64,000 nucleotides of DNA. It comes from a virus. Positions 1,801 to 60,088 of this stretch are shown here, piece after piece. Positions within the stretch are counted from its first letter, which is position 1, and each line of letters opens with the position of its first letter. The notes beneath the pieces were generated by a model. That model did no database searches and was not told the origin of the DNA. It saw only the letters and a program-made list of their open reading frames with translations. The stretch lies in IMG/VR virus record IMGVR_UViG_3300038436_000248, positions 21,677 to 85,676 of that record. One strand, written 5' to 3'. Both the position numbers and the translations under genes were made by a program.

Positions 1801-1834
1801 GCCACCGGATTGTGGCAAATGGGGCTTGCGCCCC
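1801..1834. repeat. Intergenic double hairpin, copy 1
   Basis: Hairpin GCCAC-CGGATT-GTGGC (1801-1816), then AAAT, then hairpin GGGGC-TTGC-GCCCC (1821-1834). It lies between a stop codon and the next ribosome binding site. First of a family of at least 12 in the left 9.1 kb. Confidence 0.8.
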
Positions 1835-1838
1835 TGCT

Positions 1839-2969
1839 CTATGCAACTTCCATCAACTCCTCTTCCTCATCTTCTTCACACTCCCAGGGTTCTTCTTCCA
1901 GCACGTCAGGCTGTTCCAGGAGCTCATCTGCATCGAAGGTGTTGAGGTGGGCCTTCGCCTTGCGGGTCTCTTCAAGATGATCCGTTCTCCACAGGTCTGC
2001 CTGAAAGCGACAGTCCCAGCAACCACTCCCATCCTCTCGCTGGCGGAAGAACTCCTTGGTGACCTCGGCCAGGAAGATCGGGGAGTCATCCACAGTGCCA
2101 AACTCACACCAGCTCCCACGCCCACACACATCCATGAGCCGTCCATCTGGCAGATAGGTCAGGAAAGTTACCCCACCAGAGCCCTTGCTCCCACTGTCGG
2201 ACATAGTGGAAACACCCACGCCACGTCCATTCGGTGCGATTCCTGATGTGTTGGTATAGAAAGGTTCCACATGTATCCAGGGGTCGCTTGAGTCTGGGGG
2301 AGGGGCATAGACCGTGTCCTCATCGGGGAACTCATACTCCCCATCTACACCGCAATCTTCACAGTAGCCATCAGGGAGCTTCTCTCCACATTCAGGGCAT
2401 ACACAGACCTCCTCATCAAACAGCGTTCCATCTTCCCATATCCCTTCAAGAGCTGTGTGGAGCTTGTCCCCTTGTCCGGTTGCGTAGTAGGGGATAGCCG
2501 CCCCTGTCAGGTAGTGCGGGCGGAACTCATTATGATAGGGGTCATTGGAGATACGCACAGAGATCCGATCACCAGTCTCCATGCACTCGCTTCTTCCGCT
2601 TTCCTCTACATAGGGCGCCATGATTTCCATAAAGCGCTTGGTGGCATCAGAGTCTGCCAGCCACCATCCATTGGTGGTCATCTCGAGGTCAACAGGCCAG
2701 TGACCCACAATGTTCAGGACATGTGCAAACTTTTCCATGTCCATTGTTGGCTCCCCACCAATCAGGTTTATTATCACCTTTATTTCCAGGTCTTGAAGCA
2801 GGTCTACCTGCTGCTTTACTTTGTATAGCATATCATCCCCCATATAAACAGGGTCGCTCTTTGGCGAGCATTCATACATGCAGTGCCGACAGGCAAACGT
2901 GCAGGCTTCTGTCAACAGCAGGCTGATGGTCACACCATCTTCTTTGTACTTCTCAAGATGCACAGTCAT
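1839..2969 (-). CDS. Radical SAM enzyme with extra C-terminal cysteine clusters
   Basis: Protein of 376 residues. Cys23, Cys27 and Cys30 form the CxxxCxxC motif (CTFACRHC) that binds the 4Fe-4S cluster cleaving S-adenosylmethionine; GGEPT at 71-75 is the usual SAM-contacting motif. The C-terminal half has further cysteine groups: CVCPEC plus CEDC (189-206), a pair near 283-290, and CWDC near 320. These recall the auxiliary-cluster regions of SPASM or twitch enzymes, though no SPASM signature is exact. The extreme C-terminus is highly acidic. The start is the ATG at 2969 after CGGAGG. The substrate is not evident; the neighbours are small, some cysteine-containing proteins, so peptide or RNA modification are both possible (inference). 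Confidence 0.85.
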   Translation of the reverse strand: MTVHLEKYKEDGVTISLLLTEACTFACRHCMYECSPKSDPVYMGDDMLYKVKQQVDLLQDLEIKVIINLIGGEPTMDMEKFAHVLNIVGHWPVDLEMTTNGWWLADSDATKRFMEIMAPYVEESGRSECMETGDRISVRISNDPYHNEFRPHYLTGAAIPYYATGQGDKLHTALEGIWEDGTLFDEEVCVCPECGEKLPDGYCEDCGVDGEYEFPDEDTVYAPPPDSSDPWIHVEPFYTNTSGIAPNGRGVGVSTMSDSGSKGSGGVTFLTYLPDGRLMDVCGRGSWCEFGTVDDSPIFLAEVTKEFFRQREDGSGCWDCRFQADLWRTDHLEETRKAKAHLNTFDADELLEQPDVLEEEPWECEEDEEEELMEVA

Positions 2970-2991
2970 GGGATACCTCCGTGTAATAAAC

Positions 2992-3026
2992 GCTCCCGGA
3001 TTGGAGCAAATCGGGGCCGAAGCCCC
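2992..3026. repeat. Intergenic double hairpin, copy 2
   Basis: GCTCC-CGGATT-GGAGC (2992-3007), AAATC, then GGGGC-CGAA-GCCCC (3013-3026). On the transcribed strand the second hairpin is a stable UUCG tetraloop. It precedes the radical SAM gene. Confidence 0.8.
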
Positions 3027-3030
3027 TGTG

Positions 3031-3597
3031 TTACACTGCTTGTGGTGCCCATTGCAGATCAGTGCGGATGACAGCATCCATCAGGTATCCCTTGTTGAGC
3101 TTCGCCAGGCTGCAGGACACTCTTACGCCACCATCCACTTCCTGGGCAAGGCGGACATGGAAGGGCTTCTTACTCTCCACGTAGAAGAGTTTCACGGTAC
3201 GCCCACTGTTGAAGGTGATCTCTTCAGGGAGTTCGATGAACGCTCCCTTCTTGACCTTCCCCCAATTCTCCGCCAGCCTGCGGTTGTCCTCCCGCCATTT
3301 GATAGCATGCGGGTACTCGGTAGGCGTGAGCTTGTCCAGGATGGATAGGGGACAGCCATACACATATGGACCAGACGATTCGTCCATGTCCTTGAACGTG
3401 AGGTTGAAACCATCCCGGTTATTTGGTGTCCATTTGAGCATCACCACCAGGGCGAACACCGTACCGTCTGGCTTGCGCAGAGCCGCAAAGTACTTGTTGC
3501 GCTCAAGGTGGTCCTCAACCACTTCATACGGGCGTGCAAGCCCTCGCATGATCCGACGGCACTCCCCTTTACCGCAGCGCATTCCAGTCCAACCCAT
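3031..3597 (-). CDS. Phage protein starting MGWT (DUF6927-like)
   Basis: Protein of 188 residues. The MGWT start and general layout recall a phage family of unknown function (DUF6927-type); this is recall only. Four cysteines are scattered with no obvious ribbon. The start at 3597 overlaps the upstream stop as TAATG and follows GGAGGTGA, indicating coupled translation. Confidence 0.75.
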   Translation of the reverse strand: MGWTGMRCGKGECRRIMRGLARPYEVVEDHLERNKYFAALRKPDGTVFALVVMLKWTPNNRDGFNLTFKDMDESSGPYVYGCPLSILDKLTPTEYPHAIKWREDNRRLAENWGKVKKGAFIELPEEITFNSGRTVKLFYVESKKPFHVRLAQEVDGGVRVSCSLAKLNKGYLMDAVIRTDLQWAPQAV

Positions 3598-3980
3598 TAG
3601 TTCACCTCCGTTGGGTATCCCATATCCAGGGCGTCTTGATAGTACGGTGCGTAATGCCCTTTCTTGCGTTCTGTCTCAACAGCCTCTGCAAAGCCCTTGT
3701 ACCCAAGCTCCAGGGCACGCTTTGCATTTGCGATGGCCTCTGCACGGACACGGCCTCTGTGCATCATATATCCCGTTTTGGCTTCAGTGATAATCCAATC
3801 CCCGGGAAGGCCAGACGGGGTAACATCCCTGCGAATGTGCGCATCCACAAACTCAAACCCAGGGATAACCACCTTGCTTGCGTTGCATGGGGTGAAGATT
3901 GCCCCGTTCACAACCTCAGACCCTTCCGGCGCAGGGCGCTCTGGATTATGCCGGGTGTAGTACCTTGCGTTTGCAGCCAT
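3597..3980 (-). CDS. Hypothetical phage protein
   Basis: Unrecognised basic protein of 127 residues. The start MAANARYYT at 3980 is chosen because AGGAGG precedes it and the ATG is just after the upstream stop; the longer in-frame reading overlaps the upstream gene. No membrane segment, signal peptide or known motif. Confidence 0.72.
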   Translation of the reverse strand: MAANARYYTRHNPERPAPEGSEVVNGAIFTPCNASKVVIPGFEFVDAHIRRDVTPSGLPGDWIITEAKTGYMMHRGRVRAEAIANAKRALELGYKGFAEAVETERKKGHYAPYYQDALDMGYPTEVN

Positions 3981-3981
3981 C

Positions 3982-4284
3982 TTATTTTGCCTCCTGAGCG
4001 ATTTCTTGTGCCCATTCCTCAGCTTCTGCACGAGCCCTGTTTAGGGTTGCGAATGAGCCACGACTATTGACGGTCACAATGCCGTCCGAGAAAACACGGC
4101 GTACCTTGTACAAGCGCTTGCCGTGCGGCGGTTTGATGCTGTGAATAAAGAGTGCCCCACCATCCGGCAGGTTCCAGAGATCCGGATAGGTGATGTCTTT
4201 GAAGGCCCTGACCGCACCCTTGGAGAAGAAGTGGTGCCCAATCTTCTCATTCGCTTCTTTGATCTGCTCAACACTGTAGAACAT
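3982..4284 (-). CDS. Small phage protein beginning MFYSVEQIKEAN
   Basis: Protein of 100 residues. The opening FYSVEQIKEANEKIGHHFFS followed by a β-rich region recalls a widespread small phage protein family of unknown function (DUF7447-like, from memory). The start at the ATG at 4284 follows GGAGGTTGCT; two further upstream codons in frame lack a good ribosome binding site. Confidence 0.75.
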   Translation of the reverse strand: MFYSVEQIKEANEKIGHHFFSKGAVRAFKDITYPDLWNLPDGGALFIHSIKPPHGKRLYKVRRVFSDGIVTVNSRGSFATLNRARAEAEEWAQEIAQEAK

Positions 4285-4305
4285 AGCAACCTCCATAAAC
4301 TAGAC

Positions 4306-4340
4306 GCTCCCGGATTGGAGCAAATAGGGGCCAGAGCCCC
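4306..4340. repeat. Intergenic double hairpin, copy 3
   Basis: GCTCC-CGGATT-GGAGC (4306-4321), AAATA, then GGGGC-CAGA-GCCCC (4327-4340). The first hairpin is identical to copies 2 and 4. Confidence 0.8.
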
Positions 4341-4343
4341 TGT

Positions 4344-4742
4344 TCATCCCAGAACTCTCCTCTTCTCAGGAGGGATGTAGTCTGGATGATCTTTGTACCT
4401 GGGGCAATATCCAGATGTTTCCAGCCATCCACGCAGTTCCTCCTGTACTTGTTTTGGGTGTGCAGTGATTTCATTGAGCACTCTTTGAACAGCCTGCTCT
4501 TTTGTTTCTCCATTCATTATGAGGTACCCTGTGCGCCCGTCGTATATTCGCCACAGGCACCCATAGGGGGAAGGAGTGGCCCACATATCATCAAACTGCT
4601 CGTATCCCTCAAGGACAACAGGCTCCCCGTTGGGTTCATGTACGAACATGGGCTCTCCATCTTTGTCCCTGATGTACTCAACGTCCCATAGTGGGCTCTT
4701 CCGCTCACTCCACAGTACCCTGCGGTAATAACCTTCTGGCAT
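4344..4742 (-). CDS. Hypothetical phage protein
   Basis: Unrecognised protein of 132 residues, rich in Tyr, Trp and Pro. The start is the ATG at 4742 (MPEGYYRRV) after AAAGGAG; an in-frame extension would read through the intergenic hairpins at 4765-4799. No membrane segment or metal motif. Confidence 0.72.
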   Translation of the reverse strand: MPEGYYRRVLWSERKSPLWDVEYIRDKDGEPMFVHEPNGEPVVLEGYEQFDDMWATPSPYGCLWRIYDGRTGYLIMNGETKEQAVQRVLNEITAHPKQVQEELRGWLETSGYCPRYKDHPDYIPPEKRRVLG

Positions 4743-4764
4743 AATTGCACTCCTTTTGTGTAGG

Positions 4765-4799
4765 GCTCCCGGATTGGAGCAAATCGGGGCCGAAGCCCC
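4765..4799. repeat. Intergenic double hairpin, copy 4
   Basis: GCTCC-CGGATT-GGAGC (4765-4780), AAATC, then GGGGC-CGAA-GCCCC (4786-4799). Both hairpins match copy 2 exactly. Confidence 0.8.
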
Positions 4800-4803
4800 T
4801 TGG

Positions 4804-5208
4804 TTAGATGTACCCAAGTTTCTCTGCAACATCCTTCATGCTGTCCCAGAACAGATCCATGTAGGCGTCCTCCATTTCCTGTGCCATGTCATAAAGCTGA
4901 TGGATGGTCGGCTTGAAGCCCAGGTGGCGTTCAACATCCTCAACGGACATGGCGGCGATATACATTGAACTTGCGGAGACCTGATTGGATTTCCAGGGGC
5001 CTACATAGTGTCCCTGGGCAATGTCGTTGAAGTTGTAACGAACTTCCTTGAAGTACGCACGGGACAGTGCTCCTGCAAGGCTCTCACATTGCTCCTCAAA
5101 CAGGCTATCCACGAAGCCCTGGTTCTCAAGAACACACACGACGGGGGCTTGCTCCCATTTCTCACCAAACTGACGTGCTTTGAAGGTTGCTTTCTCGAAG
5201 GTAGGCAT
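4804..5208 (-). CDS. Hypothetical phage protein
   Basis: Unrecognised acidic, mostly helical-looking protein of 134 residues. The start ATG at 5208 (MPTFEKATF) follows AAAGGACA. Double hairpins of the repeat family flank it on both sides. Confidence 0.72.
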   Translation of the reverse strand: MPTFEKATFKARQFGEKWEQAPVVCVLENQGFVDSLFEEQCESLAGALSRAYFKEVRYNFNDIAQGHYVGPWKSNQVSASSMYIAAMSVEDVERHLGFKPTIHQLYDMAQEMEDAYMDLFWDSMKDVAEKLGYI

Positions 5209-5229
5209 TTCATTGTCCTTTCATTTGCA

Positions 5230-5266
5230 GCCACCGAATTGTGGCAAATGGCGGGATATACCCGCC
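5230..5266. repeat. Intergenic double hairpin, copy 5
   Basis: GCCAC-CGAATT-GTGGC (5230-5245), AAAT, then GGCGGG-ATATA-CCCGCC (5250-5266). The second stem has a different sequence but the same placement as other copies. Confidence 0.75.
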
Positions 5267-5271
5267 AGGAT

Positions 5272-5634
5272 TTAGCTTTCACTTGGGAGGTGTAGCACCC
5301 AATATTCCCCCGATTGCCCTACCCAGATGTCAATGTCCCCGGGGATGTCCGTGAACTCGATCTTCTGGGATGTCAGGGGCCGGTAGTTCCCATCCTCACA
5401 GGTCAGCACAGCCCCACCTTCAGGAAGCTTTCGTAACTTCCAGACCTGGAAGGGCTCGTTGCGCAGCTTCTTGGCATAGGATGCGATGGCGTCCATCAGC
5501 CAAAAGGCCTTGTATGTCTCAGCTGCGTACTTTGCCCCGTCCGTGAGCAGGTGGGTGGGATACAGTTGAGGGCTCCAGCGGTGATACGCCTCAGTCCCAT
5601 AGAAGCCTTCCATTGAGTCGTTGAGTAAAGCCAT
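5272..5634 (-). CDS. DUF6876-family phage protein
   Basis: Protein of 120 residues. The order FYGTE, then LLTDGAKYAAET, then FWLMDAI, then FQVWKL, then FTDIP and a terminal LPSE matches my recall of the DUF6876 family of phage and mobile-element proteins, whose function is unknown. The start at 5634 follows AAGGAGGATCACC. Length is near that expected for the family. Confidence 0.8.
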   Translation of the reverse strand: MALLNDSMEGFYGTEAYHRWSPQLYPTHLLTDGAKYAAETYKAFWLMDAIASYAKKLRNEPFQVWKLRKLPEGGAVLTCEDGNYRPLTSQKIEFTDIPGDIDIWVGQSGEYWVLHLPSES

Positions 5635-5646
5635 GGTGATCCTCCT

Positions 5647-5865
5647 TTATTCCGCTTCAGTGATTTCGATGATCCGCCCCAGCGAGTCATCCTCAATAAG
5701 AACAGGCAAGTCACGTGCGCTGCCGTACACTTCCAGACCATCGTCGAGATACTCCTCGATCAGATCTTCCACAGTCTCCCGTGCTTCCCGAAGACTGTCA
5801 CACTCAATCACGGTGTCCGCCAGGTACCCACCCTGTATCCCGTCAGTGACAATAAAGAGTGCCAT
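5647..5865 (-). CDS. Small acidic phage protein
   Basis: Unrecognised acidic protein of 72 residues with a short β-helix-β look. The start at 5865 follows AAAGGAGC. Ends 12 bases before the next gene; part of the small-gene operon. Confidence 0.72.
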   Translation of the reverse strand: MALFIVTDGIQGGYLADTVIECDSLREARETVEDLIEEYLDDGLEVYGSARDLPVLIEDDSLGRIIEITEAE

Positions 5866-5892
5866 TTGAAGCTCCTTTCAGTAGTAAAACGG

Positions 5893-5927
5893 GCCCATCC
5901 ATGGGCAAATAGGGGGCCAGAGCCCCC
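5893..5927. repeat. Intergenic double hairpin, copy 6
   Basis: GCCCA-TCCA-TGGGC (5893-5906), AAATA, then GGGGGC-CAGA-GCCCCC (5912-5927). Confidence 0.78.
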
Positions 5928-5931
5928 TGCA

Positions 5932-6285
5932 TTACTGTGCTGCCCTCACCATGTCAGCAGCTTCGATTGGAACGTAGGCGTTGATCTCTGCTGCATCCGC
6001 CTTGCGCACCAGCTCCTGACAGAACTTGACCGCCCACTCATTGCGGGCGTCATAGTGATTGCCACTCTCGGCTGCGTACCAGAACAGCACGGACACCAGG
6101 AACTTGATGACCTCTTGCTGCAGGTAACGGTGCTGATACTTCAAGGCCTTGGCTGTTTCACGGGCCTTCAAGCGGTTGATGTTCGCCATGTCTCCAAGTA
6201 GCTCGCCCATAAACTCTGGCGTGACCTCTTTCCGTAGGTCATAAGCAGAGATGGCAGCATCATTGACGGTGATTGTTTTAGGCAT
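5932..6285 (-). CDS. Hypothetical phage protein
   Basis: Unrecognised, mostly helical-looking protein of 117 residues. The start at the ATG at 6285 (MPKTITVND) follows GAAAGGAGC; the longer reading translates through the hairpin repeat. No metal motif or membrane segment. Confidence 0.72.
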   Translation of the reverse strand: MPKTITVNDAAISAYDLRKEVTPEFMGELLGDMANINRLKARETAKALKYQHRYLQQEVIKFLVSVLFWYAAESGNHYDARNEWAVKFCQELVRKADAAEINAYVPIEAADMVRAAQ

Positions 6286-6315
6286 AGTGAAGCTCCTTTC
6301 AGGAGTAAAGAAGGT

Positions 6316-6350
6316 GCCCATCCGTGGGCAAATCAGGGGCATGTAGCCCC
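6316..6350. repeat. Intergenic double hairpin, copy 7
   Basis: GCCCA-TCCG-TGGGC (6316-6329), AAATCA, then GGGGC-ATGTA-GCCCC (6336-6350). The second stem overlaps the 3' end of the downstream gene. Confidence 0.78.
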
Positions 6351-6686
6351 TGTCCTGGATTCGATGACCCCCATGGTCAGGTCATATACACGGCGCAGGA
6401 AGTCCCTTTCCTGTATCGGCAGGAAGTAGTCTTCCTTGTAGGCCACGTCGAAGACACGAGCGTCCGGGCACTCATCAGGAGCAAAGACACCATGGCATGC
6501 CCAGCACTCTTCATTGTCCTGGCCGATCAGGACAGCGCCACAGTGTGGGCATTCTGTGAGGAGACCCGTCACCATCACGGTGTTCTCAAGGTCTGAAACG
6601 AAGCCAATGGTCTCGATCTTGGCGGGGTTTGAACCATCCAGGTTCTCCAGGAAGCTCTTGGTTGAAGGGCGGATGTCAGTTTTCAT
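6333..6686 (-). CDS. Small zinc-ribbon protein
   Basis: Protein of 117 residues with CPHCG and CWACHG separated by about 12 residues, a plausible zinc ribbon. The start MKTDIRPST at 6686 is chosen for GAAAGGAAC upstream. The C-terminus includes FLRRVYDLTMGVIES. Function unknown. Confidence 0.74.
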   Translation of the reverse strand: MKTDIRPSTKSFLENLDGSNPAKIETIGFVSDLENTVMVTGLLTECPHCGAVLIGQDNEECWACHGVFAPDECPDARVFDVAYKEDYFLPIQERDFLRRVYDLTMGVIESRTGATCP

Positions 6687-6721
6687 GTGAAAAGTTCCTT
6701 TCGGGAATGGTAGATAGGGAT

Positions 6722-6755
6722 GTCCACATTTGGACAAATCGGGGGCAATGCCCCC
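6722..6755. repeat. Intergenic double hairpin, copy 8
   Basis: GTCCA-CATT-TGGAC (6722-6735), AAATC, then GGGGGC-AAT-GCCCCC (6741-6755). The GTCCA/TGGAC stem links this family to similar hairpins before plus-strand late genes (32850, 34328, 60043). Confidence 0.78.
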
Positions 6756-6759
6756 TTGA

Positions 6760-7080
6760 TCAGTCAAACATCGTGCCAAAGCGCTGATTGTGAGCCTTCA
6801 GGCGGTCAGGGGTGATAGAGAACATGATCTCATTCACACGATCCACGAAGTCCTGGCTGCGCTTCTTTGAGCAGATCCCTGTAGGATCCACGTGCCGATC
6901 TTTTATTTCCCAATCCACCAGATGGGCAAGCCGTGCGTGGACCTGAGCGTACTCCATCAGGCTGTAGGAGTGGCCGTAATCATGCTCGGCGTACTCGACT
7001 TCAGGGAAGTGACCAGCCAGGAGGATCTCCCGCAGTTTTGCTTTTGTGGCGGTGTGAACGATCTTGTTTGTTTTAGGCAT
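6760..7080 (-). CDS. Hypothetical phage protein
   Basis: Unrecognised basic protein of 106 residues. The start ATG at 7080 (MPKTNKIVH) follows AAAGGAGATTGCT. It begins MPKTN like the small zinc-ribbon gene at 1546-1779, probably by chance or shared start context. Confidence 0.72.
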   Translation of the reverse strand: MPKTNKIVHTATKAKLREILLAGHFPEVEYAEHDYGHSYSLMEYAQVHARLAHLVDWEIKDRHVDPTGICSKKRSQDFVDRVNEIMFSITPDRLKAHNQRFGTMFD

Positions 7081-7113
7081 AGCAATCTCCTTTCAAGAGA
7101 CAAAGCGGTCTGT

Positions 7114-7147
7114 GCCCATCCGTGGGCAAATCGGGGGCATTGCCCCC
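7114..7147. repeat. Intergenic double hairpin, copy 9
   Basis: GCCCA-TCCG-TGGGC (7114-7127), AAATC, then GGGGGC-ATT-GCCCCC (7133-7147). Confidence 0.78.
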
Positions 7148-7151
7148 TTGT

Positions 7152-7667
7152 CTAATCCATGTGGGTCCAGACACTCATCTGGAAGCCCGCATCCCGAAAG
7201 ACCTTGGCGAACGCTTCCGCAAAGGCCTGGTTCAGATCGTAGGATTGTCTGGCCGTACCATCCAGGCCAGCTTCTTCCGGGTGCCACGTAACACCCCGTG
7301 CGACTCCCCCGTAGTAGTGCTTGGAGAACTCATGGAACTTCGCAGCCCATTTAGCCAGGCTCGAATTGCCGGGGGTGATGACCAGGGCGGCGTACCCGCA
7401 GGGGCCGTGCTTCACGACCTCTATCAGGCCCCTGTCAGGATCCACAACACCCATTGGGGTGCAGACGGTGTTCTTGATGGCCTCAATCCCTGCGTTGTGA
7501 GCTTCCGCCCATAGCTTTGCAAACTGACTGTACCGATCTTCTCTCTCGGCAGCCTGATCGGCAATCATCTGCTTCCAGGCCTCACGTGCGGCCTTGCGAT
7601 GCTCCTTGCAGTAGGAGCTACCCTTATGAGTCGGGTTTGAACATCCGTTATATTTGCAGGTAGTCAT
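7152..7667 (-). CDS. Hypothetical protein with N-terminal Cys/His zinc-binding motif
   Basis: Protein of 171 residues. The N-terminus CKYNGCSNPTHKG...CKEH has the cysteine/histidine spacing of a small zinc finger often placed at the start of phage HNH-type or DNA-binding proteins; no HNH core follows. The rest is unrecognised. The start at 7667 follows GGAGG. It is the first gene after a promoter-like element at 7697-7702. Confidence 0.74.
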   Translation of the reverse strand: MTTCKYNGCSNPTHKGSSYCKEHRKAAREAWKQMIADQAAEREDRYSQFAKLWAEAHNAGIEAIKNTVCTPMGVVDPDRGLIEVVKHGPCGYAALVITPGNSSLAKWAAKFHEFSKHYYGGVARGVTWHPEEAGLDGTARQSYDLNQAFAEAFAKVFRDAGFQMSVWTHMD

Positions 7668-7696
7668 GCGTTCCTCCGTATGGTTGATAGAGTTGG

Positions 7697-7724
7697 ATTA
7701 TACCACGCTGTATAAGTATAGCGT
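7697..7724 (-). promoter_or_regulatory. Extended -10 promoter with overlapping near-palindrome
   Basis: On the minus strand TGG-TATAAT (TATAAT at 7702-7697) is an extended -10 lying 30 bases before the gene start at 7667. No good -35 is seen. The 18-base near-palindrome at 7707-7724 (CGCTATACTTATACAGCG on the minus strand) covers the spacer and -35 region and could be an operator; it also contains GC-TATACT, a second possible -10. Confidence 0.5.
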
Positions 7725-7729
7725 AAAAA

Positions 7730-8320
7730 CTAGAACAGGGGAAGCTGTTCTATGGATGTTCTGGCGAACACCCGTGTCCTTGCGGCCATCCATGTAACCG
7801 CCTGGATTTGATGGGGCATAAGCCCTGTGACCTCGGATGCTTCCAGGTACCCATCTGCGATCTCGTTGTATCGCTTACCTGCCAGGGTGCCGGGGTTGAC
7901 ACTGAGGTCTCCCATGGCAATACGTGCTGCCCATACATCGACAGTCACCGCCTTGGAACTGTCAGGCCGCAGGATGTTATCCCAGAAGGACGTCACCTTG
8001 ACCCCGCTCAGCACATCCAGATGGCCTGCAGCGATCTGAAAGGCCTTGAGCTTGTTCGTGCCATAAGTGGCAACCTTGATGCTGTTCGGGTGGATCCCGA
8101 CCTTATGGGCACGCAGCACCGTCAAGGTGTCCGACAGATTGCGTTCCCACTTATTGCGTGGGCTCAATACTGCCAGGACACCTGCCACGTTCTCGAGCGG
8201 CAGCATCAACTCAGTCGCCCAGGTGCGGCACCAGTTGTGCGCTTGCTGGTACCACGTCATCCCCGCCTGGCGGTCCATGCCATCTGCACGGGTGAACAGG
8301 GCCATAATGTTCTCAAGCAT
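7730..8320 (-). CDS. Conserved phage protein of unknown function (LSPRNKWERN motif)
   Basis: Protein of 196 residues, mostly helical. The core GVLAVLSPRNKWERNL and a later VTVDVWAARIAMG look like a conserved phage family I recall only as of unknown function (possibly DUF7178-like); a helix-hairpin-helix, glycosylase-like fold is a guess. The start at 8320 follows GGAGGTACGT. It is upstream of the promoter-like element that serves the next small-gene group. Confidence 0.75.
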   Translation of the reverse strand: MLENIMALFTRADGMDRQAGMTWYQQAHNWCRTWATELMLPLENVAGVLAVLSPRNKWERNLSDTLTVLRAHKVGIHPNSIKVATYGTNKLKAFQIAAGHLDVLSGVKVTSFWDNILRPDSSKAVTVDVWAARIAMGDLSVNPGTLAGKRYNEIADGYLEASEVTGLMPHQIQAVTWMAARTRVFARTSIEQLPLF

Positions 8321-8343
8321 ACGTACCTCCGAAGAAAGTCACC

Positions 8344-8377
8344 GCCGAATTGCGGCAAATCAGGGGCATATGCCCCT
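8344..8377. repeat. Intergenic double hairpin, copy 10
   Basis: Degenerate first hairpin GCCG-AATTG-CGGC (8344-8356), AAATC, then AGGGGC-ATAT-GCCCCT (8362-8377). Confidence 0.72.
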
Positions 8378-8380
8378 GTC

Positions 8381-8743
8381 CTACTCAGTGAACGTTGTCC
8401 ACGCCTTGAACAGGTCTTTATAGTTCACGGTGGCGGAGGGGTATGCCTCCGACTTCAGGAGTGCCCCGTGGCTGTAGAACGTCACGGAACAACCATAGGT
8501 GGCACGCCCATCTCCGAACGGGCAATCTTGCGTGACCAGGCCACGATCCTCCGGGATGCCCAACCCTGGGACGTAATTCCTGACCACACACCCCTCAATT
8601 TGAGGGATGCACACAATATGTGGGGACCTCTTGACCAATCCCGCAAGCTCAATCATCTGGGCCAGGGTGCCCCTGTCAACTGCAAGGGTGTAAAGGAAGC
8701 TCACGCCATGCTGATTAGACTCAGATACGACAGTAATAAACAT
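8381..8743 (-). CDS. Hypothetical phage protein
   Basis: Unrecognised β-rich-looking protein of 120 residues. The start MFITVVSES at 8743 follows GGAGGTGCAT; the longer in-frame reading runs through a hairpin repeat. No metal motif. Confidence 0.72.
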   Translation of the reverse strand: MFITVVSESNQHGVSFLYTLAVDRGTLAQMIELAGLVKRSPHIVCIPQIEGCVVRNYVPGLGIPEDRGLVTQDCPFGDGRATYGCSVTFYSHGALLKSEAYPSATVNYKDLFKAWTTFTE

Positions 8744-8763
8744 ATGCACCTCCAAGGAAGAGT

Positions 8764-8797
8764 GCCACCGGATTGTGGCAAATAGGGGCATGCGCCC
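8764..8797. repeat. Intergenic double hairpin, copy 11
   Basis: GCCAC-CGGATT-GTGGC (8764-8779), AAATA, then GGGGC-ATGC-GCCCC (8784-8797). First hairpin identical to copy 1. Confidence 0.8.
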
Positions 8798-8802
8798 CTG
8801 TC

Positions 8803-9054
8803 TTATGCGTTCACCGTGAGGAAGTCTTCAAGGTGAAGGTTCTCGATTACCTGCCATGCAGGCACGTGGGCAATCATCCCACTCTGGGATCTCACCAGGC
8901 CATCAGAATTGATCCAGCGTTCCGGGTCATCCTCATTTACGGCCTCAATCGCCTTTTTAGCAACGCCCATCCACTCGGGCATCGGGGGGTAGACGTTATG
9001 CTGCAGGTGATTCGTAAGAGCCACATGAAACCGAATTGCAGTTGCTCCAGTCAT
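8803..9054 (-). CDS. Small hypothetical phage protein
   Basis: Unrecognised protein of 83 residues. The start MTGATAIRF at 9054 follows AAAGGAGTTGAAA. The C-terminus ends ENLHLEDFLTVNA. Flanked by double hairpins on both sides. Confidence 0.7.
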   Translation of the reverse strand: MTGATAIRFHVALTNHLQHNVYPPMPEWMGVAKKAIEAVNEDDPERWINSDGLVRSQSGMIAHVPAWQVIENLHLEDFLTVNA

Positions 9055-9073
9055 TTTCAACTCCTTTTGAAAC

Positions 9074-9110
9074 GCCACCGGATTGCGGCAAATGGGGGGC
9101 TTATCGCCCC
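9074..9110. repeat. Intergenic double hairpin, copy 12
   Basis: GCCAC-CGGATT-GCGGC (9074-9089), AAAT, then GGGG-GGCTTATCG-CCCC (9094-9110). The second stem overlaps the 3' end of the downstream gene. Confidence 0.72.
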
Positions 9111-9283
9111 TTGTGATACTCAACCATGGCGTCCCAGGCGTCACTCCATGAAGCATGGGGCCCAGAAACCATATCCCATGACCCACGGCCATGCAGTGCG
9201 TCATTCCCTGGGGTCTCTGATACAATCGCGTACTCATCATTCCGATGTAGCACATAGAACTCAACATGTGTTTCTTCAGGCAT
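9101..9283 (-). CDS. Small hypothetical phage protein
   Basis: Unrecognised protein of 60 residues. MPEETHVEFYVL resembles the N-termini of the ITKEE-tail genes at the left edge, but the ITKEE tail is absent. The start at 9283 follows TAGGAGGATAGT, a strong ribosome binding site. Confidence 0.7.
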   Translation of the reverse strand: MPEETHVEFYVLHRNDEYAIVSETPGNDALHGRGSWDMVSGPHASWSDAWDAMVEYHKGR

Positions 9284-9872: not shown

Positions 9873-9892
9873 CACAGATCCTTTCTGAACAA

Positions 9893-10437
9893 GCTTGCCG
9901 GATTGCAAGCTTCAAAAATGCCCAAGCTACGCACTTGGGCACTTGTGAAGCCCCCGCAAGCGCAACCTTGCGGGTCTGATATGATTCCCCGGTCTCGTTC
10001 ACCCCTTGACCAGGGTCGGTTTGTGCAATCGCACTGCACACAAGGGCTCTCATTATCTCTGGCCCCCGAAGGGGCAGCCACTGGCTCCGGCTCTTTTGGA
10101 CAGCTCTCGGCTCCCCGGCGGTTTGCCCGCCAGGCCCGTGCCCTAAGATGACCGCTCCAGGCATCACCCGTTGTTTGATTTCCCAGTTTGTTCATCTGGG
10201 GGGGTATCGCAGACCAGTTCCACGCTTTCCGCTCCGATTCCGTTACCGCTGGCGCTGCTCCCGTGTATGGCACTACCGTTCTCACATTACCCTCAGACTT
10301 CGAACCACTCGCCCGCTTAGGGCACACCTAAGCCGCCCCCCACCTACCGGATTCTCTAGTCCTACTCTATTCCTGAGTAAGGCCTTGCCAATTTTTAAAG
10401 TTCAGGTACTACCCAATAGGCCGTCCTTGGCCGCCCG
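9893..10437 (-). ncRNA. Candidate large structured noncoding RNA, block 1
   Basis: No credible gene occupies these 545 bases; reading frames here are short and arginine/proline-rich. Strong hairpins follow one another: GCTTGC-CGGATT-GCAAGC (9893-9910), GCCCAAG...CTTGGGC (9920-9940), CCGCAAG...CTTGCGG near 9954-9973, GTGCAATCGCACTGCAC near 10022, CCCC-GAA-GGGG near 10066, GGCGG-TTTG-CCCGCC near 10118. The neighbours are transcribed leftwards, so the minus strand is assumed, just downstream of the gene at 10440-10823. Size and density recall the GOLLD, ROOL or HEARO classes of large RNAs found in phages, but I cannot assign one. Confidence 0.5.
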
Positions 10438-20540: not shown

Positions 20541-21542
20541 CTACCCCTGGCTTATCCCATTATTATTGAGCCAATCAAGTCGCACACGGGACACTGTGGA
20601 TTTTGGGAGTCCCGTAGCCCGAACAGTCTCAGCTACAGTTGGGACTCTCCCGGATACCTGGTACTCAGTGTCCAAATGTGTACAAATTTCTGCCTTGTTG
20701 CGGGTGGCTCTTTTAGGGCCTAGTGAGACGTCCCGCCCATGTTTTGCCTCTGCCTGATAAAAACGTCCCATGTCCCGTCCCACTGGCTGTCCCACGTCCC
20801 GTCCCACTGGCTGTCCCAATTGGGACAAACGGGACTGCTTATTAGGGCTCTCGTCTTGTGGGCCACGGATGATACGAAGCTCTCCACGAGAGATTTTTCT
20901 CTCGTCTGATTTGGCCCAAGCGGCGTTCATTGAGGAAATGTATTTTGCGTACTCCCCTTTGAATGCACGCAAGTTTTCTTGATAGGCGGATAGCACAACC
21001 GCAATCTGCCCACCAAGCACATCGCCGCTCACGTACACAACAACAGAGGATCCCAGGCCCAGGATTATCGCAAGGAGATACTGAAAGTACAGCAGGACAG
21101 AATGATCCATATTCTCCACAAGAGAGATAGATTGTCCCAGGCCCGCAATTGCTGAGATCATTGCCATAAAAACCAGGGCAACAACCAGGGTTCTTCCGGA
21201 CGTTTTCTTTTCGTTTATTGCTCTGGCTGCAGCATAAACAACAATGCCACCCTCAATTGCGAATACTGCAGCACCAGCCTCAAGTTGTGCAAGAAGAACG
21301 GATCCGCTTGCAGCAGCAGCAAGGTAAAACATAGAGGCTGTGCGTGAAGCACCCAAAATGATTGCTGCAACAGATTGCAGCAAGTATAGCCAGAACATAA
21401 ATCCAACACTGGTTATGTCAAGCGCCTTCGGTGTAACAGGAGGAGGCACACGAAGCTCATAGTTTGTTTTGAAGAGCTCGTATGCCTCCTGTTCTGCTTG
21501 TGCTACAACCGAGAGGCGGTCAGAAGTAACTGTTTCTCCCAT
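20541..21542 (-). CDS. Polytopic membrane protein with C-terminal HTH
   Basis: Protein of 333 residues. About five hydrophobic segments lie between residues 45 and 180. A hydrophilic linker follows with two exact copies of GQPVGRD, encoded by a 24-base tandem repeat. The C-terminus (TVAETVRATGLPKSTVSRV) reads as a helix-turn-helix with recognition helix KSTVSRV. A membrane-tethered DNA-binding protein is the simplest reading, perhaps anchoring or regulating phage DNA. It lies just downstream of ssb. The start at 21542 follows GAAAGGTGG. Confidence 0.78.
   Translation of the reverse strand: MGETVTSDRLSVVAQAEQEAYELFKTNYELRVPPPVTPKALDITSVGFMFWLYLLQSVAAIILGASRTASMFYLAAAASGSVLLAQLEAGAAVFAIEGGIVVYAAARAINEKKTSGRTLVVALVFMAMISAIAGLGQSISLVENMDHSVLLYFQYLLAIILGLGSSVVVYVSGDVLGGQIAVVLSAYQENLRAFKGEYAKYISSMNAAWAKSDERKISRGELRIIRGPQDESPNKQSRLSQLGQPVGRDVGQPVGRDMGRFYQAEAKHGRDVSLGPKRATRNKAEICTHLDTEYQVSGRVPTVAETVRATGLPKSTVSRVRLDWLNNNGISQG
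20766..20813. repeat. 24-base tandem repeat, two copies
   Basis: Units 20766-20789 and 20790-20813 differ at one base. They encode GQPVGRD(V/M) in the linker between the membrane domain and the HTH of the gene above. Confidence 0.85.
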
Positions 21543-22906: not shown

Positions 22907-22909
22907 GAC

Positions 22910-22981: not shown

Positions 22982-23069
22982 ATGTTGCAATCGGCCTGGC
23001 TGCTTGGGATTTGTAGATTTTCTTTATATCGCCAGACCTGCGGGTATACATAAGGCGCCGTAGCGCTTG

Positions 23070-29397: not shown

Positions 29398-29413
29398 TCG
29401 TATATAGAAAGCA

Positions 29414-29427
29414 ATTGTAGACTTTAG
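29414..29427 (+). promoter_or_regulatory. WTTGTAG motif, copy 1 (candidate late promoter)
   Basis: ATTGTAGACTTTAG, 14 bases before the portal start. Fits the shared pattern WTTGTAG-N3-[TG][TC]AG found in six plus-strand gaps. Confidence 0.5.
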
Positions 29428-32835: not shown

Positions 32836-32849
32836 TCTGATTTTACGCT

Positions 32850-32867
32850 GTCCATATTTAGACAAAT
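32850..32867. repeat. GTCCA hairpin plus AAAT before the capsid gene
   Basis: GTCCA-TATT-TAGAC then AAAT, 16 bases before the capsid start. Same type as the first hairpin of double-hairpin copy 8 and of 34328 and 60043. Confidence 0.5.
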
Positions 32868-34269: not shown

Positions 34270-34287
34270 AGTTTTCACGTGAAAACT
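34270..34287. repeat. CACGTG-centred palindrome, copy 3
   Basis: Perfect 18-base palindrome AGTTTTCACGTGAAAACT in the gap after the capsid gene. It contains the same 14-base core as 11098 and 17911. Confidence 0.7.
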
Positions 34288-34311
34288 CCTATACAAAAAA
34301 TTCCTCCACAG

Positions 34312-34325
34312 ATTGTAGATATTAG
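34312..34325 (+). promoter_or_regulatory. WTTGTAG motif, copy 2
   Basis: ATTGTAGATATTAG, 30 bases before the connector gene; a GTCTA/TAGAC hairpin follows at 34328-34341. Confidence 0.5.
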
Positions 34326-34327
34326 AA

Positions 34328-34341
34328 GTCTACATTTAGAC
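34328..34341. repeat. GTCTA-type hairpin
   Basis: GTCTA-CATT-TAGAC just upstream of the connector gene start, similar in sequence to the hairpins at 6722, 32850 and 60043. Confidence 0.5.
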
Positions 34342-34354
34342 ATTTGGAGATGTT

Positions 34355-42480: not shown

Positions 42481-43923
42481 ATGGCATTCTATTTACGATT
42501 ACAAAACGACACAGAAACAGCCGACTTTTTAGGAGACGAGTTTCTTCTAACAGACGGAGGCCTGCAAGTAGACGCACCGGAGAGCCGTGATATTTGGGGT
42601 GGTGATTCTGTTTACGCCCATGGTGCACAGCTGATCAGCTCAAAGTTTGGCACCCGGACGTTCAAGATTACCTTCTCGGTCTTTGGGGACACCAGAGATT
42701 CTCTCCTTGGAAATATTGCCCTACTTGACCGCCTGATTGATGCAGCACGAAGGCGCTCCATTGAGGAATCTGGCAGCAGGGTGGAGCTTGTGTACGCCTG
42801 GGAAAGCACCTCCAGGAAGAGCTACTTCGAGGTACTCAGCGGCACACTGATTTGGCCGGAGAACGTAATGTCAGTTGAACAGGTTCACCAGCAAACTGAC
42901 CAGGGCTGGGTGATTTATGATATGGAGTTGTCCCTTATAGTCAACCCATTCTCCACCCCTGTCTCTCCTGTGAGCGGAGTCCCCTATCCCGTCACCATTT
43001 CTAATGACACTGGTGCCGGAGAGTCTATATTTGTACAAAATGACGGCGTAGGAAACTGGATTGACATCCCGGGTGAGGTATTACAAAGCTCTTTCCCCCT
43101 ATTTACTTCTATCTCCATGCAGAGCGATTCTGGTGAGGCGGAGAAAACCTCAAAGGTGTACATTGGCGTCCGAAAAGGGAACAAAGATTTTGTCAGCTTC
43201 CTTGATGATAAATCCGCTGCTCATGTAATTACGGGAGCCACACAAACAGCAGACGCAGATTACTCCGCAGGTGGGACATACACCCAACTGCCATTCTCTG
43301 GGGTTGCGGAACAGGTACTCATCAGGTGGGATCTCTCCGATGAACAAATAGAGGCCACCCAGGGTGCGTTCAGATTATTTGGGCGCTGCAAGGATAACAC
43401 TTACTGGAGCCCTGATGCAAACTACGCCATTGGCGTATATTACCAGGATACCTTGCTGCACAAAACGGAATGGCGGGCACCAATCGAGAGTGACGTGACC
43501 CTCTTCGACTTTGGTACAGTGTTCTTGCCTCCGTGGCTTGGATCTATGGAAGGACTTGCGGGTCTCTCTATTGCTATTCTTGGCATGCGAAAGCTTGCGG
43601 GCTCCACGACGATCAACCTTGACTATCTTTCCCTGCTTCCCCAGGACGGGGGTTACAGAGTTTTGAATTTCCGTGGGGGAGGCATGGGGCAGTTCGAGTA
43701 CCTTGTCGATGATTCCTGGAGTGGCGTAACCTATCATGTGAACCTGGCCGGAAAAAAGTCAGGCCTTCCTTATGGGCTTATGGAGCCTATCACACTGCAA
43801 CCAAAAACCGGGCAGCGTTTGTACTTTCTAATGGAAGGCACGGCAGGTTCCACGGAGATCTCCAGAAAACTCAAAGTTTCCCTTGGGGTTGTTCCTACTT
43901 ACATGGTGCTTGCATGTTACTAA
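42481..43923 (+). CDS. Distal tail protein-like
   Basis: Protein of 480 residues following the tape measure. The N-terminal about 160 residues (YLRLQNDTETADFLGDEF ... LVYAWESTSRKSYFEVLSG) fit a siphovirus distal tail (Dit) type β-fold; the rest is β-rich and probably a carbohydrate-binding extension. The start ATG at 42481 follows TAGGAGTGACG. Confidence 0.72.
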   Translation: MAFYLRLQNDTETADFLGDEFLLTDGGLQVDAPESRDIWGGDSVYAHGAQLISSKFGTRTFKITFSVFGDTRDSLLGNIALLDRLIDAARRRSIEESGSRVELVYAWESTSRKSYFEVLSGTLIWPENVMSVEQVHQQTDQGWVIYDMELSLIVNPFSTPVSPVSGVPYPVTISNDTGAGESIFVQNDGVGNWIDIPGEVLQSSFPLFTSISMQSDSGEAEKTSKVYIGVRKGNKDFVSFLDDKSAAHVITGATQTADADYSAGGTYTQLPFSGVAEQVLIRWDLSDEQIEATQGAFRLFGRCKDNTYWSPDANYAIGVYYQDTLLHKTEWRAPIESDVTLFDFGTVFLPPWLGSMEGLAGLSIAILGMRKLAGSTTINLDYLSLLPQDGGYRVLNFRGGGMGQFEYLVDDSWSGVTYHVNLAGKKSGLPYGLMEPITLQPKTGQRLYFLMEGTAGSTEISRKLKVSLGVVPTYMVLACY

Positions 43924-48061: not shown

Positions 48062-49258
48062 ATGAATTATCCAGCAAGTTATGATACAGCAGCAACTACA
48101 TTTGGCACTTTGCGGGATCTGGTTGTCCTTCATCTATCCACAGAAGTATCTGAGACGGATGACGTTTTCACTTTTGATGAAAGTCTACATGTGGACAATC
48201 TCTCTGCCAATACGTTCCTCTCTTTGCCAGGGGAGACTGTTCGCATTACATCCAAGGGTGTAAATGGATCCGGGGCGGTGAATGTCGAGCGGGCTATTAG
48301 TGGATCTGCAAAGACCCACGAAGCAGGTACGGTTGCTACACAGGAAATTACTTCGGGTACTGTGGAGATATTGAAGGGCCTGATCATAGCGGCACAAAAG
48401 TATAGAGGGCTAGTTGGCTCAGCGCTACCAGCCTCCTGCGTGCCCGGAGAAGCCTTCATTCATTCAGACGGAAACCTCTATGTTTGTTTCACCGACAACA
48501 CATGGACAAAGATCACCCGGCCCAATCATGCAGAGTACACAGGCCTGGAAGCAGAAGACGCCCACACAATTTACTACAAACCCTCCGACTTTCCTGCCTG
48601 GCATGCATCCATCCCTGGGGAGCATCTGACAAACTCTGCGTCCCACAACCATTCAAGTGAGTTACTCAATGGGCTGCCTGTCCGAAAGTTTTCATGTGGA
48701 AACTTTGCAGACATCCCAGCCGCCAAGAATATTGGGGACGTATTTTTTGCTTTAGACCAGAACTCCTTGTATTTTTCCTACGACGGATCCTCCTGGAGCA
48801 GATACGAGAGCTCACCCAAGGGAACGACGCTCCTATTTGACACCGAATGCCCTGAAGGTTGGGTGCGTGTGGAAGAACTGGATGGTCGATTCCCCCGTGG
48901 GGCAACTGCGGGACGCTGGGCGAACCTTGTTTCCGGCGGCTCATTAGAGCATTCCCATGTCATGCCCACCCCAATCAGCCATACGCATACTGTAGCAGCT
49001 GTAGCCATGTACTCCCAACCATCCGGGGCTCACACGCATTCCCTCTCGTTGACCGCTGGCTCTGGGGCACAGACTGCTCCGTATCAGATCACAAACTACA
49101 ATATCACAAATTTGACCTCCAGCGAAGCTGGCAGCCATTCTCATTCTGTGACCATTCCTGCGACGAACACTCACAGCGCAGGGAAGGCAACAGCAAACAC
49201 GAAATCTGTTGAGCACTTACCCTCATACAAGAAACTTTTATTCTGTAGAAAGACTTAG
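48062..49258 (+). CDS. Tail fibre, collar-type (paralog 1)
   Basis: Protein of 398 residues, first of three related fibres. The N-terminal about 120 residues are conserved among them; a middle DGSSWSRYESSPKGTTLLFD leads to the tail-collar motif ECPEGWVRVEELDGRFPRG. The C-terminus has repeated HxH motifs (EHSHVM, SHTHTV, AHTHSL, SHSHSV), as in T4 gp12-type fibres that bind metal ions at the trimer axis, and ends LLFCRKT. The start at 48062 is one base after the upstream stop. Confidence 0.82.
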   Translation: MNYPASYDTAATTFGTLRDLVVLHLSTEVSETDDVFTFDESLHVDNLSANTFLSLPGETVRITSKGVNGSGAVNVERAISGSAKTHEAGTVATQEITSGTVEILKGLIIAAQKYRGLVGSALPASCVPGEAFIHSDGNLYVCFTDNTWTKITRPNHAEYTGLEAEDAHTIYYKPSDFPAWHASIPGEHLTNSASHNHSSELLNGLPVRKFSCGNFADIPAAKNIGDVFFALDQNSLYFSYDGSSWSRYESSPKGTTLLFDTECPEGWVRVEELDGRFPRGATAGRWANLVSGGSLEHSHVMPTPISHTHTVAAVAMYSQPSGAHTHSLSLTAGSGAQTAPYQITNYNITNLTSSEAGSHSHSVTIPATNTHSAGKATANTKSVEHLPSYKKLLFCRKT

Positions 49259-59535: not shown

Positions 59536-60042
59536 ATGGGAGGGAACAGCTCTCCAACATCAAGCCATCAGGAGGCATTCTTGTCACCTCAAGCAGAAGA
59601 GCGCATCGCAACAATCGTTGTGGATGGTGTTCGAAAAGCGCTTGCTTCAAGCGATGACCATAAAGCCCTGCACGAACTACAGGGCTTAGTGGCGACTCTT
59701 TGTGAAGAGCAGAGAGCCGCCAATAACCGTCTTGCGGATGTTGAGAGGCAGCTTGAAGGTGTGGCTGCGGATGTTCAGGGTCTCTCTGATGACCTGAGTG
59801 GGGACAAGGGCATTATTGCAACTGTGCGGGGTATGCAACCTTGCGTTTCCACCCTGGAGAGAGCTGTTCTTGGAGACAGAGAACACCCGGAAGAAAACAA
59901 AGGCCTTGTAGTCCGTGTGTCCTCACTTGAAAAGGTTGTGCGGGACATTTCAAAACCCGCATGGATTGTGTTGACGGCGGTGCTTACCACGACCACCACG
60001 TTCATCTTAGCAAACTATATTTTTTTCCGAGCGTCGCCATAA
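59536..60042 (+). CDS. Coiled-coil protein with C-terminal membrane anchor
   Basis: Protein of 168 residues: polar N-terminus, then an alpha-helical coiled coil (LVATLCEEQRAANNRLADVE ... VQGLSDDLSG), then one membrane segment near 145-165 (AWIVLTAVLTTTTTFILANY). Resembles hemolysin XhlA-like or holin-associated lysis proteins. The start at 59536 follows GGGGAGAACTAAA. Confidence 0.7.
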   Translation: MGGNSSPTSSHQEAFLSPQAEERIATIVVDGVRKALASSDDHKALHELQGLVATLCEEQRAANNRLADVERQLEGVAADVQGLSDDLSGDKGIIATVRGMQPCVSTLERAVLGDREHPEENKGLVVRVSSLEKVVRDISKPAWIVLTAVLTTTTTFILANYIFFRASP

Positions 60043-60056
60043 GTCCAGATGTGGAC
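60043..60056. repeat. GTCCA-type hairpin before a plus-strand gene
   Basis: GTCCA-GATG-TGGAC followed by AAAG, immediately after the upstream stop and 41 bases before the next start; compare 6722, 32850 and 34328. Confidence 0.5.
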
Positions 60057-60074
60057 AAAGTTTACCAAAAAACA

Positions 60075-60088
60075 ATTGTAGAACTTAG
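60075..60088 (+). promoter_or_regulatory. WTTGTAG motif, copy 6
   Basis: ATTGTAGAACTTAG, 9 bases before the gene start at 60097, with the ribosome binding site at its end. Confidence 0.45.

What the first reader, a model, noticed from the sequence alone, without database searches (positions are those of the whole stretch)
1801..9110. Intergenic double-hairpin family whose polarity follows the genome, not the transcript
Seen: at least 12 gaps between leftward genes hold two adjacent hairpins: a short stem (GCTCC/GGAGC, GCCAC/GTGGC, GCCCA/TGGGC or GTCCA/TGGAC), then (C)AAAT on the plus strand, then a GC-rich stem such as GGGGC/GCCCC. Stems vary with compensating changes, so structure is kept. 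Plus-strand genes have relatives reading in the same plus-strand direction (31325, 32850, and less exactly 34328 and 60043), that is in opposite orientation to transcription compared with the left-end copies. Inference: a DNA-level signal (replication, packaging or protein binding) or a mobile palindromic repeat could explain a fixed polarity; mRNA processing or stabilisation could explain the left-end copies alone.
Basis: partly seen in the sequence, partly recalled or inferred. Interest (0 to 1): 0.65.

Follow-up and report, generated by a model that had tools for sequence, protein, structure and literature searches.

The report
Intercistronic RNA double hairpins plus operators
A phage carries at least 13 near-standard two-hairpin RNA spacers between the genes of one leftward operon, and the supposed mirror-image copies elsewhere turn out to be an unrelated DNA operator scattered through this whole phage group, so the claimed fixed polarity is not real.

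Summary
The leftward double hairpins are real and far beyond chance. A mechanical scan finds 12 on the minus strand of the 85.7-kb genome, none on the plus strand and none in shuffles. Read as mRNA they are always: stop codon, usually 2-5 nt, GC-rich hairpin H1, (N)AUUUG, hairpin H2, then Shine-Dalgarno and ATG. Nine copies share an AAUYCG loop on stems that change by compensation, and H2 ends 19-22 nt before the ATG in all nine.

The rightward "relatives" are not this element. They have one hairpin only, and a covariance model of the family does not find them. Three of them (32850, 34328, 60043), and H2 at 6722, match a 16-bp dyad, AGTCYAnnnnTRGACT. It occurs 13 times in this genome (0.8 expected) and is dispersed in several related phages. 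The position upstream of the post-capsid gene is conserved in most relatives. Its half-sites vary independently, with C.A "mismatches" tolerated, so it is a DNA operator and not an RNA stem. 31325 is neither.

So "polarity follows the genome" fails: two families were merged. Best reading: a sense-oriented intercistronic RNA spacer that insulates and stabilises neighbouring genes, plus a dispersed operator.

The parts
1801..1834 (-). double hairpin copy: H1 GGGGC-gcaa-GCCCC, AUUUG, H2 GCCAC-AAUCCG-GUGGC
2992..3026 (-). double hairpin copy: H1 GGGGC-uucg-GCCCC, GAUUUG, H2 GCUCC-AAUCCG-GGAGC
4306..4341 (-). double hairpin copy: H1 AGGGGC-ucug-GCCCCU, AUUUG, H2 GCUCC-AAUCCG-GGAGC
4765..4799 (-). 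double hairpin copy, 35 nt identical to 2992
5230..5266 (-). double hairpin copy: H1 GGCGGG-uauau-CCCGCC, H2 GCCAC-AAUUCG-GUGGC
5893..5928 (-). double hairpin copy, 4-nt-loop class: H2 GCCCA-UGGA-UGGGC
6316..6352 (-). double hairpin copy, 4-nt-loop class; the upstream gene's TGA overlaps the end of H1
6722..6755 (-). double hairpin copy whose H2 is the operator dyad GTCCAAATGTGGAC
7114..7147 (-). double hairpin copy, 4-nt-loop class
8341..8378 (-). double hairpin copy: H2 GCCGC-AAUUCG-GCGGU
8764..8799 (-). double hairpin copy: H2 GCCAC-AAUCCG-GUGGC
9074..9109 (-). double hairpin copy: H2 GCCGC-AAUCCG-GUGGC; the stop of the small ORF 9101-9283 lies in the H1 loop
9623..9643 (-). H1 followed by ATTTTC without H2, between leftward genes
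32849..32864 (.). operator dyad TGTCCATATTTAGACA upstream of the major capsid gene; a reader 'copy'
34327..34342 (.). operator dyad AGTCTACATTTAGACA upstream of the gene after the capsid gene; position conserved in most of 25 relatives checked
60042..60057 (.). operator dyad AGTCCAGATGTGGACA; a reader 'copy'
48182..48197 (.). operator dyad AGTCTACATGTGGACA inside a rightward gene
53890..53905 (.). operator dyad TGTCCACATCTGGACA inside a rightward gene
20669..20684 (.). weaker operator dyad TGTCCAAATGTGTACA inside a leftward gene
43022..43037 (.). weaker operator dyad AGTCTATATTTGTACA inside a rightward gene
34310..34318 (+). AGATTGTAG box, promoter-like, just upstream of the operator at 34327
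60073..60081 (+). CAATTGTAG box downstream of the operator at 60042
29412..29420 (+). CAATTGTAG box upstream of the portal gene

Best explanation
Two independent elements are present. (A) A standard two-hairpin RNA spacer is repeated between the genes of one leftward operon (window about 1.8-9.9 kb, with outliers just to the left). In the mRNA, H1 forms right behind the stop codon and H2 forms just outside the initiation footprint of the next gene, joined by an unpaired AUUUG. Shown: orientation, position, structure, covariation, conserved linker and loop. Inferred: it insulates neighbouring genes (keeps stop and start regions from misfolding together) and stabilises the message. If the AUUUG linker is cut, each product would carry a hairpin at its new 3' or 5' end. 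The conserved AAUYCG loop may be read by a protein or stabilise the fold. (B) A 16-bp dyad, AGTCYAnnnnTRGACT, dispersed through the genome and shared by related phages, acts as a DNA operator. Shown: number, positions, independent half-sites. Inferred: a phage dimeric regulator binds it, next to the promoter-like CGATTGTAG box and elsewhere.
For: A: 12 minus-sense hits, 0 plus-sense, 0 in shuffles. A covariance model finds copies only on the minus strand of this genome, with no convincing match in 12 related records plus 23 shorter contigs. H2 stems: 100% paired, 4 of 5 pairs change on both sides, slid controls 26.7-63.3%. H2 ends 19-22 nt before ATG in nine of nine AAUYCG copies, and 27-35 nt in the four others; every copy is followed by a Shine-Dalgarno and ATG. 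Stop to H1 is 2-5 nt wherever the gene call is sound. RNA folds give the two hairpins as the minimum in 10 of the 11 spacer copies folded; the weak L006 copy has H1 but not H2. Gap folding energy per nt in this operon is -0.335, against -0.201 elsewhere and -0.13 to -0.19 in relatives. B: 13 sites against 0.8 expected here; 19 vs 2.4 and 16 vs 1.8 in two related records. Six exact matches in the window against 0.10. Conserved upstream of the post-capsid gene in most of 25 relatives. Positions 5 and 12 vary independently, Fisher p=0.77, 15 of 68 sites C.A. Sites lie before genes on both strands and inside genes.
Against: No transcript, cleavage or expression data exist. For A, no related phage carries it, so its covariation is among copies within one genome, some of which are probably duplicates of each other. 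No enzyme or binding protein for AUUUG or AAUYCG is identified. Two stops fall inside or at the end of H1 (6316, 9074), so H1 is not always free of ribosomes. For B, no binding protein is identified. Some of the excess over shuffles could reflect codon bias. The half-site set was chosen with a symmetric matrix. The covariation at positions 4/13 follows phage-specific consensus and so does not by itself separate DNA from RNA.
Confidence: 0.6

Rival explanations
1. One DNA-level family with polarity fixed by the genome (replication, packaging or protein binding).
For: All double hairpins read the same way on the plus strand, and the asymmetric centre of the operator dyads leans one way here, 8:1 by my count.
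Against: All double hairpins lie between leftward genes, so genome and transcript polarity cannot be separated by them; they are placed by stop and start codons. The rightward sites are a different motif not found by the family's model. No clear polarity in relatives (11).
Confidence: 0.04
2. H1 is a series of weak or conditional intrinsic terminators (attenuators) that grade expression along the operon; H2 is incidental.
For: H1 is GC-rich and followed by AUUU; the 9891 copy has AUUUUU and H1 at 9623 is followed by ATTTTC.
Against: Only three U in almost all copies, and the consensus terminator scan does not report H1 of the twelve copies. Terminators a few bp behind a stop codon were almost completely repressed by the ribosome in E. 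coli (PMC4824070). It does not explain H2, its conserved loop or its spacing to ATG.
Confidence: 0.15
3. A processing site: an endonuclease cuts the unpaired AUUUG, leaving H1 as a 3' cap and H2 as a 5' cap on monocistronic messages. A specific form of the best explanation.
For: The linker is invariant between two stable hairpins; the layout is what a stabilising cut site would need.
Against: No cleavage data, no candidate enzyme, host unknown; an invariant linker could also reflect common descent of the copies.
Confidence: 0.25
4. A mobile or recombinogenic palindromic repeat (REP/MITE-like, or a boundary sequence for swapping small gene cassettes).
For: 2992 and 4765 share 35 identical nt in different flanks, so units have been copied; the flanking genes are mostly small.
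Against: Only one orientation, only in gaps of one operon, always between stop and start codon; no copy in related phages or in bacterial genomes by pattern; stems diverge with compensation, which needs selection.
Confidence: 0.1
5. The rightward dyads are 5'-UTR RNA hairpins (mRNA stabilisers or translational operators) and not DNA operators.
For: Many sites end about 10-14 nt before a start codon on either strand, and the outer bases pair.
Against: Positions 5/12 vary independently with 15 C.A and 15 T.G of 68; positions 7/10, which could not pair in a 4-nt RNA loop, are complementary in 13 of 16 conserved-position sites; many sites lie inside genes.
Confidence: 0.12

Closest known systems
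Start-associated and extended start-associated sequences (SAS/ESAS) of cluster K mycobacteriophages (PMC3203893)
   Same: Short repeated elements placed just upstream of the starts of a subset of non-structural genes, nearly all in one orientation, with inverted repeats in about half; function unknown.
   Different: SAS is a fixed 13-bp sequence GGGATAGGAGCCC conserved among the cluster's phages; here structure and the AUUUG/AAUYCG parts are kept while stems change, it sits between stop and start, and it is found in one phage only.
Stoperators/operators of cluster A mycobacteriophages (L5, Bxb1; PMC6550527)
   Same: Many copies of a regulator-binding site dispersed over the genome, with a consensus that shifts between related phages.
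   Different: Stoperators are asymmetric 13-bp sites oriented with transcription and a repressor is known; the site here is a 16-bp dyad on both sides of genes and inside them, and its protein is unknown.
P1 C1 operators (from memory)
   Same: Repressor sites scattered over a phage-plasmid; this phage also has ParB and parS-like sites.
   Different: P1 sites are asymmetric and sequence-unrelated as I recall; not tested here.
RiboJ-type leader insulators with a hairpin upstream of the RBS (PMC6206723)
   Different: Synthetic, ribozyme-based, at promoters; here natural, between genes of an operon, no ribozyme match (Rfam).
Intrinsic terminators
   Same: GC-rich hairpin behind a stop codon.
   Different: U-tract is only AUUU in nearly all copies, and a second conserved hairpin follows.

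Membership tests
Intrinsic (Rho-independent) terminator | GC-rich hairpin immediately followed by a U-tract | tested here: not met
The terminator scan did not list H1 of the twelve.
SAS/ESAS (cluster K) | 13-bp GGGATAGGAGCCC near the start codon | tested here: not met
   The leaders between H2 and ATG hold varied Shine-Dalgarno sequences and no such repeat.
Stoperator | Dispersed copies of one regulator site over the genome | tested here: met
   13 sites vs 0.8 expected; several relatives also in excess.
Stoperator | Asymmetric site oriented with transcription | tested here: not met
   16-bp dyad with independent half-sites; no clear polarity.
Stoperator | Bound by the phage repressor | not testable with these tools
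   No repressor identified; Pfam scans of 30 proteins gave only ParB and a weak sigma-4/KorA-like 77-aa protein as DNA-binding regulator candidates.
REP/BIME or MITE-like mobile palindrome | Intergenic copies independent of gene orientation, or copies in other genomes | tested here: not met
   12 minus-sense, 0 plus-sense; no copy in viral contigs, one chance-like match without the H2 stem in bacterial genomes.
Known Rfam RNA family | Covariance-model match at gathering score | tested here: not met
   0 matches over the whole window.
mRNA processing/stabilising hairpin pair | Cleavage at the linker and stabilised products | not testable with these tools
   Needs 5'/3'-end mapping; anatomy fits.

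The most novel reading that the evidence does not exclude
A natural, standardised intercistronic part: one phage has fitted at least 13 junctions of an operon with a uniform RNA cassette (H1-AUUUG-H2 at a fixed distance from the next start codon) that is cut at AUUUG or read through its AAUYCG loop by a dedicated factor, so that each gene is expressed as an insulated unit.
Probability: 0.2. Interest if true: 0.7.

Novelty: new variant of a known kind. Interest (0 to 1): 0.5.

Why it matters
The double hairpin would be a natural counterpart of the insulator and stability parts used in synthetic biology, repeated with many stem variants in one operon, so rules for spacing and loop can be read off and tested directly. 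The dispersed dyad gives a testable handle on gene control in an uncultured phage group with no close cultured member. Separating the two also removes a misleading claim of genome-fixed polarity.

Tried and rejected
Genome-fixed polarity: rejected after the covariance model and the dyad analysis.

Direct DNA search for the element: no match in phage records. A first 18-nt pattern in viral contigs gave 13 matches, all chance by context. A 22-nt mRNA-sense pattern gave 0 in viral contigs and 1 in a Nitrospirales MAG without the H2 stem.

Relatives by the ribonucleotide reductase and radical-SAM proteins: none found in viral contigs. Capsid relatives in bacterial genomes: none, so no host was identified.

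Double hairpins in related phages: single chance-level hits only. G010 73850 has an ATTTG between two stems but its gap is otherwise unlike.

31325 as a copy: rejected. The orthologous gap in several relatives keeps an ATTGRAG-like box without the hairpin.

HK022 put-like antitermination (two adjacent hairpins, from memory) was considered: put sites are two per genome near promoters, unlike at least 13 between genes; not tested further.

Rfam: nothing. tRNA scan gave two unnamed tRNA-like hits only.
Full report
WHAT WAS CHECKED. The window is bases 21677-85676 of an 85,676-bp virus record. I fetched whole or nearly whole records of twelve of them.

THE LEFTWARD ELEMENT IS REAL. On the plus strand every copy reads stem1-loop-stem1', AAAT, (N), GC-rich stem2. 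All lie between leftward genes, so the biologically relevant reading is the minus strand: stop codon, H1 (GGGGC/GCCCC type, with UUCG loops in two copies and a GCAA loop in another), (N)AUUUG, H2, Shine-Dalgarno, ATG. A mechanical scan for any H1-ATTT-H2 gives 12 hits on the minus strand of the genome, 0 on the plus strand and 0 in 10 Markov shuffles; related records give 0 or 1 chance-like hit. RNA folding returns the two hairpins in 10 of the 11 spacer copies folded; the eleventh, the weak copy at L006 13754, forms H1 but not H2. A twelfth stretch sent in that call (L007 405-480) was the wrong place and is not counted.

COVARIATION AND ANATOMY. For the nine copies with an AAUYCG loop, all H2 pairs form in all distinct sequences, four of five pairs change on both sides, and no shuffle reaches the observed covariation score; slid controls pair 26.7-63.3% of cells. 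The most telling copy is 9891-9940, where both stems are replaced (GCCCAAG/CUUGGGC and AAGCUUGC/GCAAGCUU) while order and loop AAUCCG remain. H2 ends 19, 20, 20, 20, 21, 21, 21, 22 and 22 nt before the ATG in these nine. In the second class (loops UGGA, CGGA, AAUG) it is 27, 30, 33 and 35 nt. Where the gene call is sound, H1 starts 2-5 nt after the stop; at 6316 and 9074 the stop lies at the end of or within H1. Placement by stop and start codons of the leftward genes is what an mRNA element shows; a replication or packaging signal has no reason to keep it.

THE RIGHTWARD 'COPIES' ARE SOMETHING ELSE. None has the GC-rich second stem. A covariance model of the leftward family recovers eight copies at E of 1e-9 or below (the eight it was built from), the 4-nt-loop copies at E 0.0005-0.1 and the weak left-arm copy at 0.01. 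All matches in this genome are on the minus strand; none is at 31325, 32850, 34328 or 60043; relatives give only hits with E above 1. Upstream of the gene that follows the capsid gene (window 34355), most of 25 relatives show: terminator, CGATTGTAG, a short stretch, AGTCYAAnnTTRGACT, Shine-Dalgarno, ATG. A symmetric matrix trained on those sites finds 13 sites in this genome against 0.8 expected, 19 against 2.4 in G010 and 16 against 1.8 in G011. The excess is smaller in G009 (9 against 3.2) and in the shorter records. Exact GTCYAnnnnTRGAC occurs 6 times in the window against 0.10 expected and 3 times in the left arm against 0.07.

DNA, NOT RNA. Over 68 sites, position 5 (C or T) and position 12 (G or A) vary independently: 33 C-G, 15 C-A, 15 T-G, 5 T-A, Fisher p = 0.77. 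An RNA stem would not tolerate 22% C.A. In the conserved-position set, positions 7 and 10, which would lie inside a 4-nt RNA loop, are complementary in 13 of 16. Sites lie upstream of genes on both strands and inside genes. A dimeric DNA-binding protein reading two half-sites explains all of this. Positions 4/13 change together (p = 2e-9), but mostly between phages, as expected when a regulator's specificity shifts (inference). The matrix was symmetric and hits were thresholded, which favours symmetric sites but cannot create independence.

POLARITY. Double hairpins occur only in leftward gaps, so they cannot tell genome polarity from transcript polarity. The dyads lean one way in this genome when the centre is asymmetric (8 to 1, a post-hoc count of mine), but over all related sites the GT:AC centres are 20:11. 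AAAT follows the dyad at 6722 and 32850 but not at the other sites. The polarity claim is therefore not supported.

MECHANISM. For the leftward element the best reading is an intercistronic RNA spacer. H1 follows the stop codon and H2 stands just outside the region the initiating ribosome covers (footprint from general knowledge), so the gap is fully folded while stop and start regions stay free. This should insulate neighbouring genes from each other's context and protect the message. If AUUUG is cut, each product gains a terminal hairpin; that step is inferred. Termination at H1 is less likely: three U are a poor tract, and terminators a few bp behind a stop codon were almost completely repressed in E. 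coli (PMC4824070). RiboJ, whose residual hairpin upstream of the RBS has been suggested to raise mRNA stability and expose the RBS (PMC6206723), is a working analogue, not a relative. For the dyad, an operator for a phage regulator is the best reading; no protein is identified.

KNOWN KINDS. SAS/ESAS (PMC3203893) share placement upstream of starts but not sequence. Stoperators (PMC6550527) share dispersal but are asymmetric and oriented with transcription. The double hairpin is thus a variant of a known kind (intercistronic or leader hairpin), and the dyad a further example of dispersed operators. Within the phage records, IMG/VR contigs and GTDB genomes searched, no copy of the double hairpin was found outside this genome; those searches may leave out near-identical records, so 'private' is only as good as the collections.

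LIMITS. Gene starts outside the copies listed come from a simple caller of my own, which miscalled several genes. The shuffles are order-1 Markov and do not keep codon structure. No host is known: capsid relatives were not found in bacterial genomes, and the nearest cultured phages are Leptospira LE3/LE4 at 26% identity in the capsid.

Noticed in passing
L006 7824-8606 (genome 7824-8606, minus); window 11099-11110, 17912-17923, 34273-34284; genome 8626, 16472: A ParB protein (ParB_N and HTH_ParB domains) and five exact TTTCACGTGAAA parS-core sites plus two with one mismatch in this genome; suggests a phage-plasmid partition system.
   Followed up: partly
window 29412, 34310, 60073; G009 64707, 69582, 71598, 78191: A CGATTGTAG-like box recurs in intergenic positions, often right behind terminators and upstream of late genes, in this phage and relatives; looks like a phage-specific late promoter.
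   Followed up: partly
window 11545-12498 and 12507-13598: Adjacent rightward genes for an EcoRI-type adenine methylase and a GmrSD_N-HNH protein inside the leftward region; looks like a restriction-modification or defence cassette.
   Followed up: no
window 28854-29111: Small Zn-ribbon-like protein, conserved near the terminase in most related records (47-68% identity over 40-69 aa); possible regulator, unidentified.
   Followed up: no
window 29104-29337: 77-aa protein with weak sigma-70 region 4 / KorA-like matches just upstream of the late module; a candidate for binding the dyad.
   Followed up: no
window 22909-22982 and 23069-23141: Two tRNA-like hits with anticodons ARAGORN cannot assign.
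   Followed up: no
L039-L042 (G005) 10241, 44828, 54168, 58574, 63019: In this relative the dyad consensus is AGTACACATGTGTACT, a full palindrome; the specificity seems to shift between phages.
   Followed up: partly
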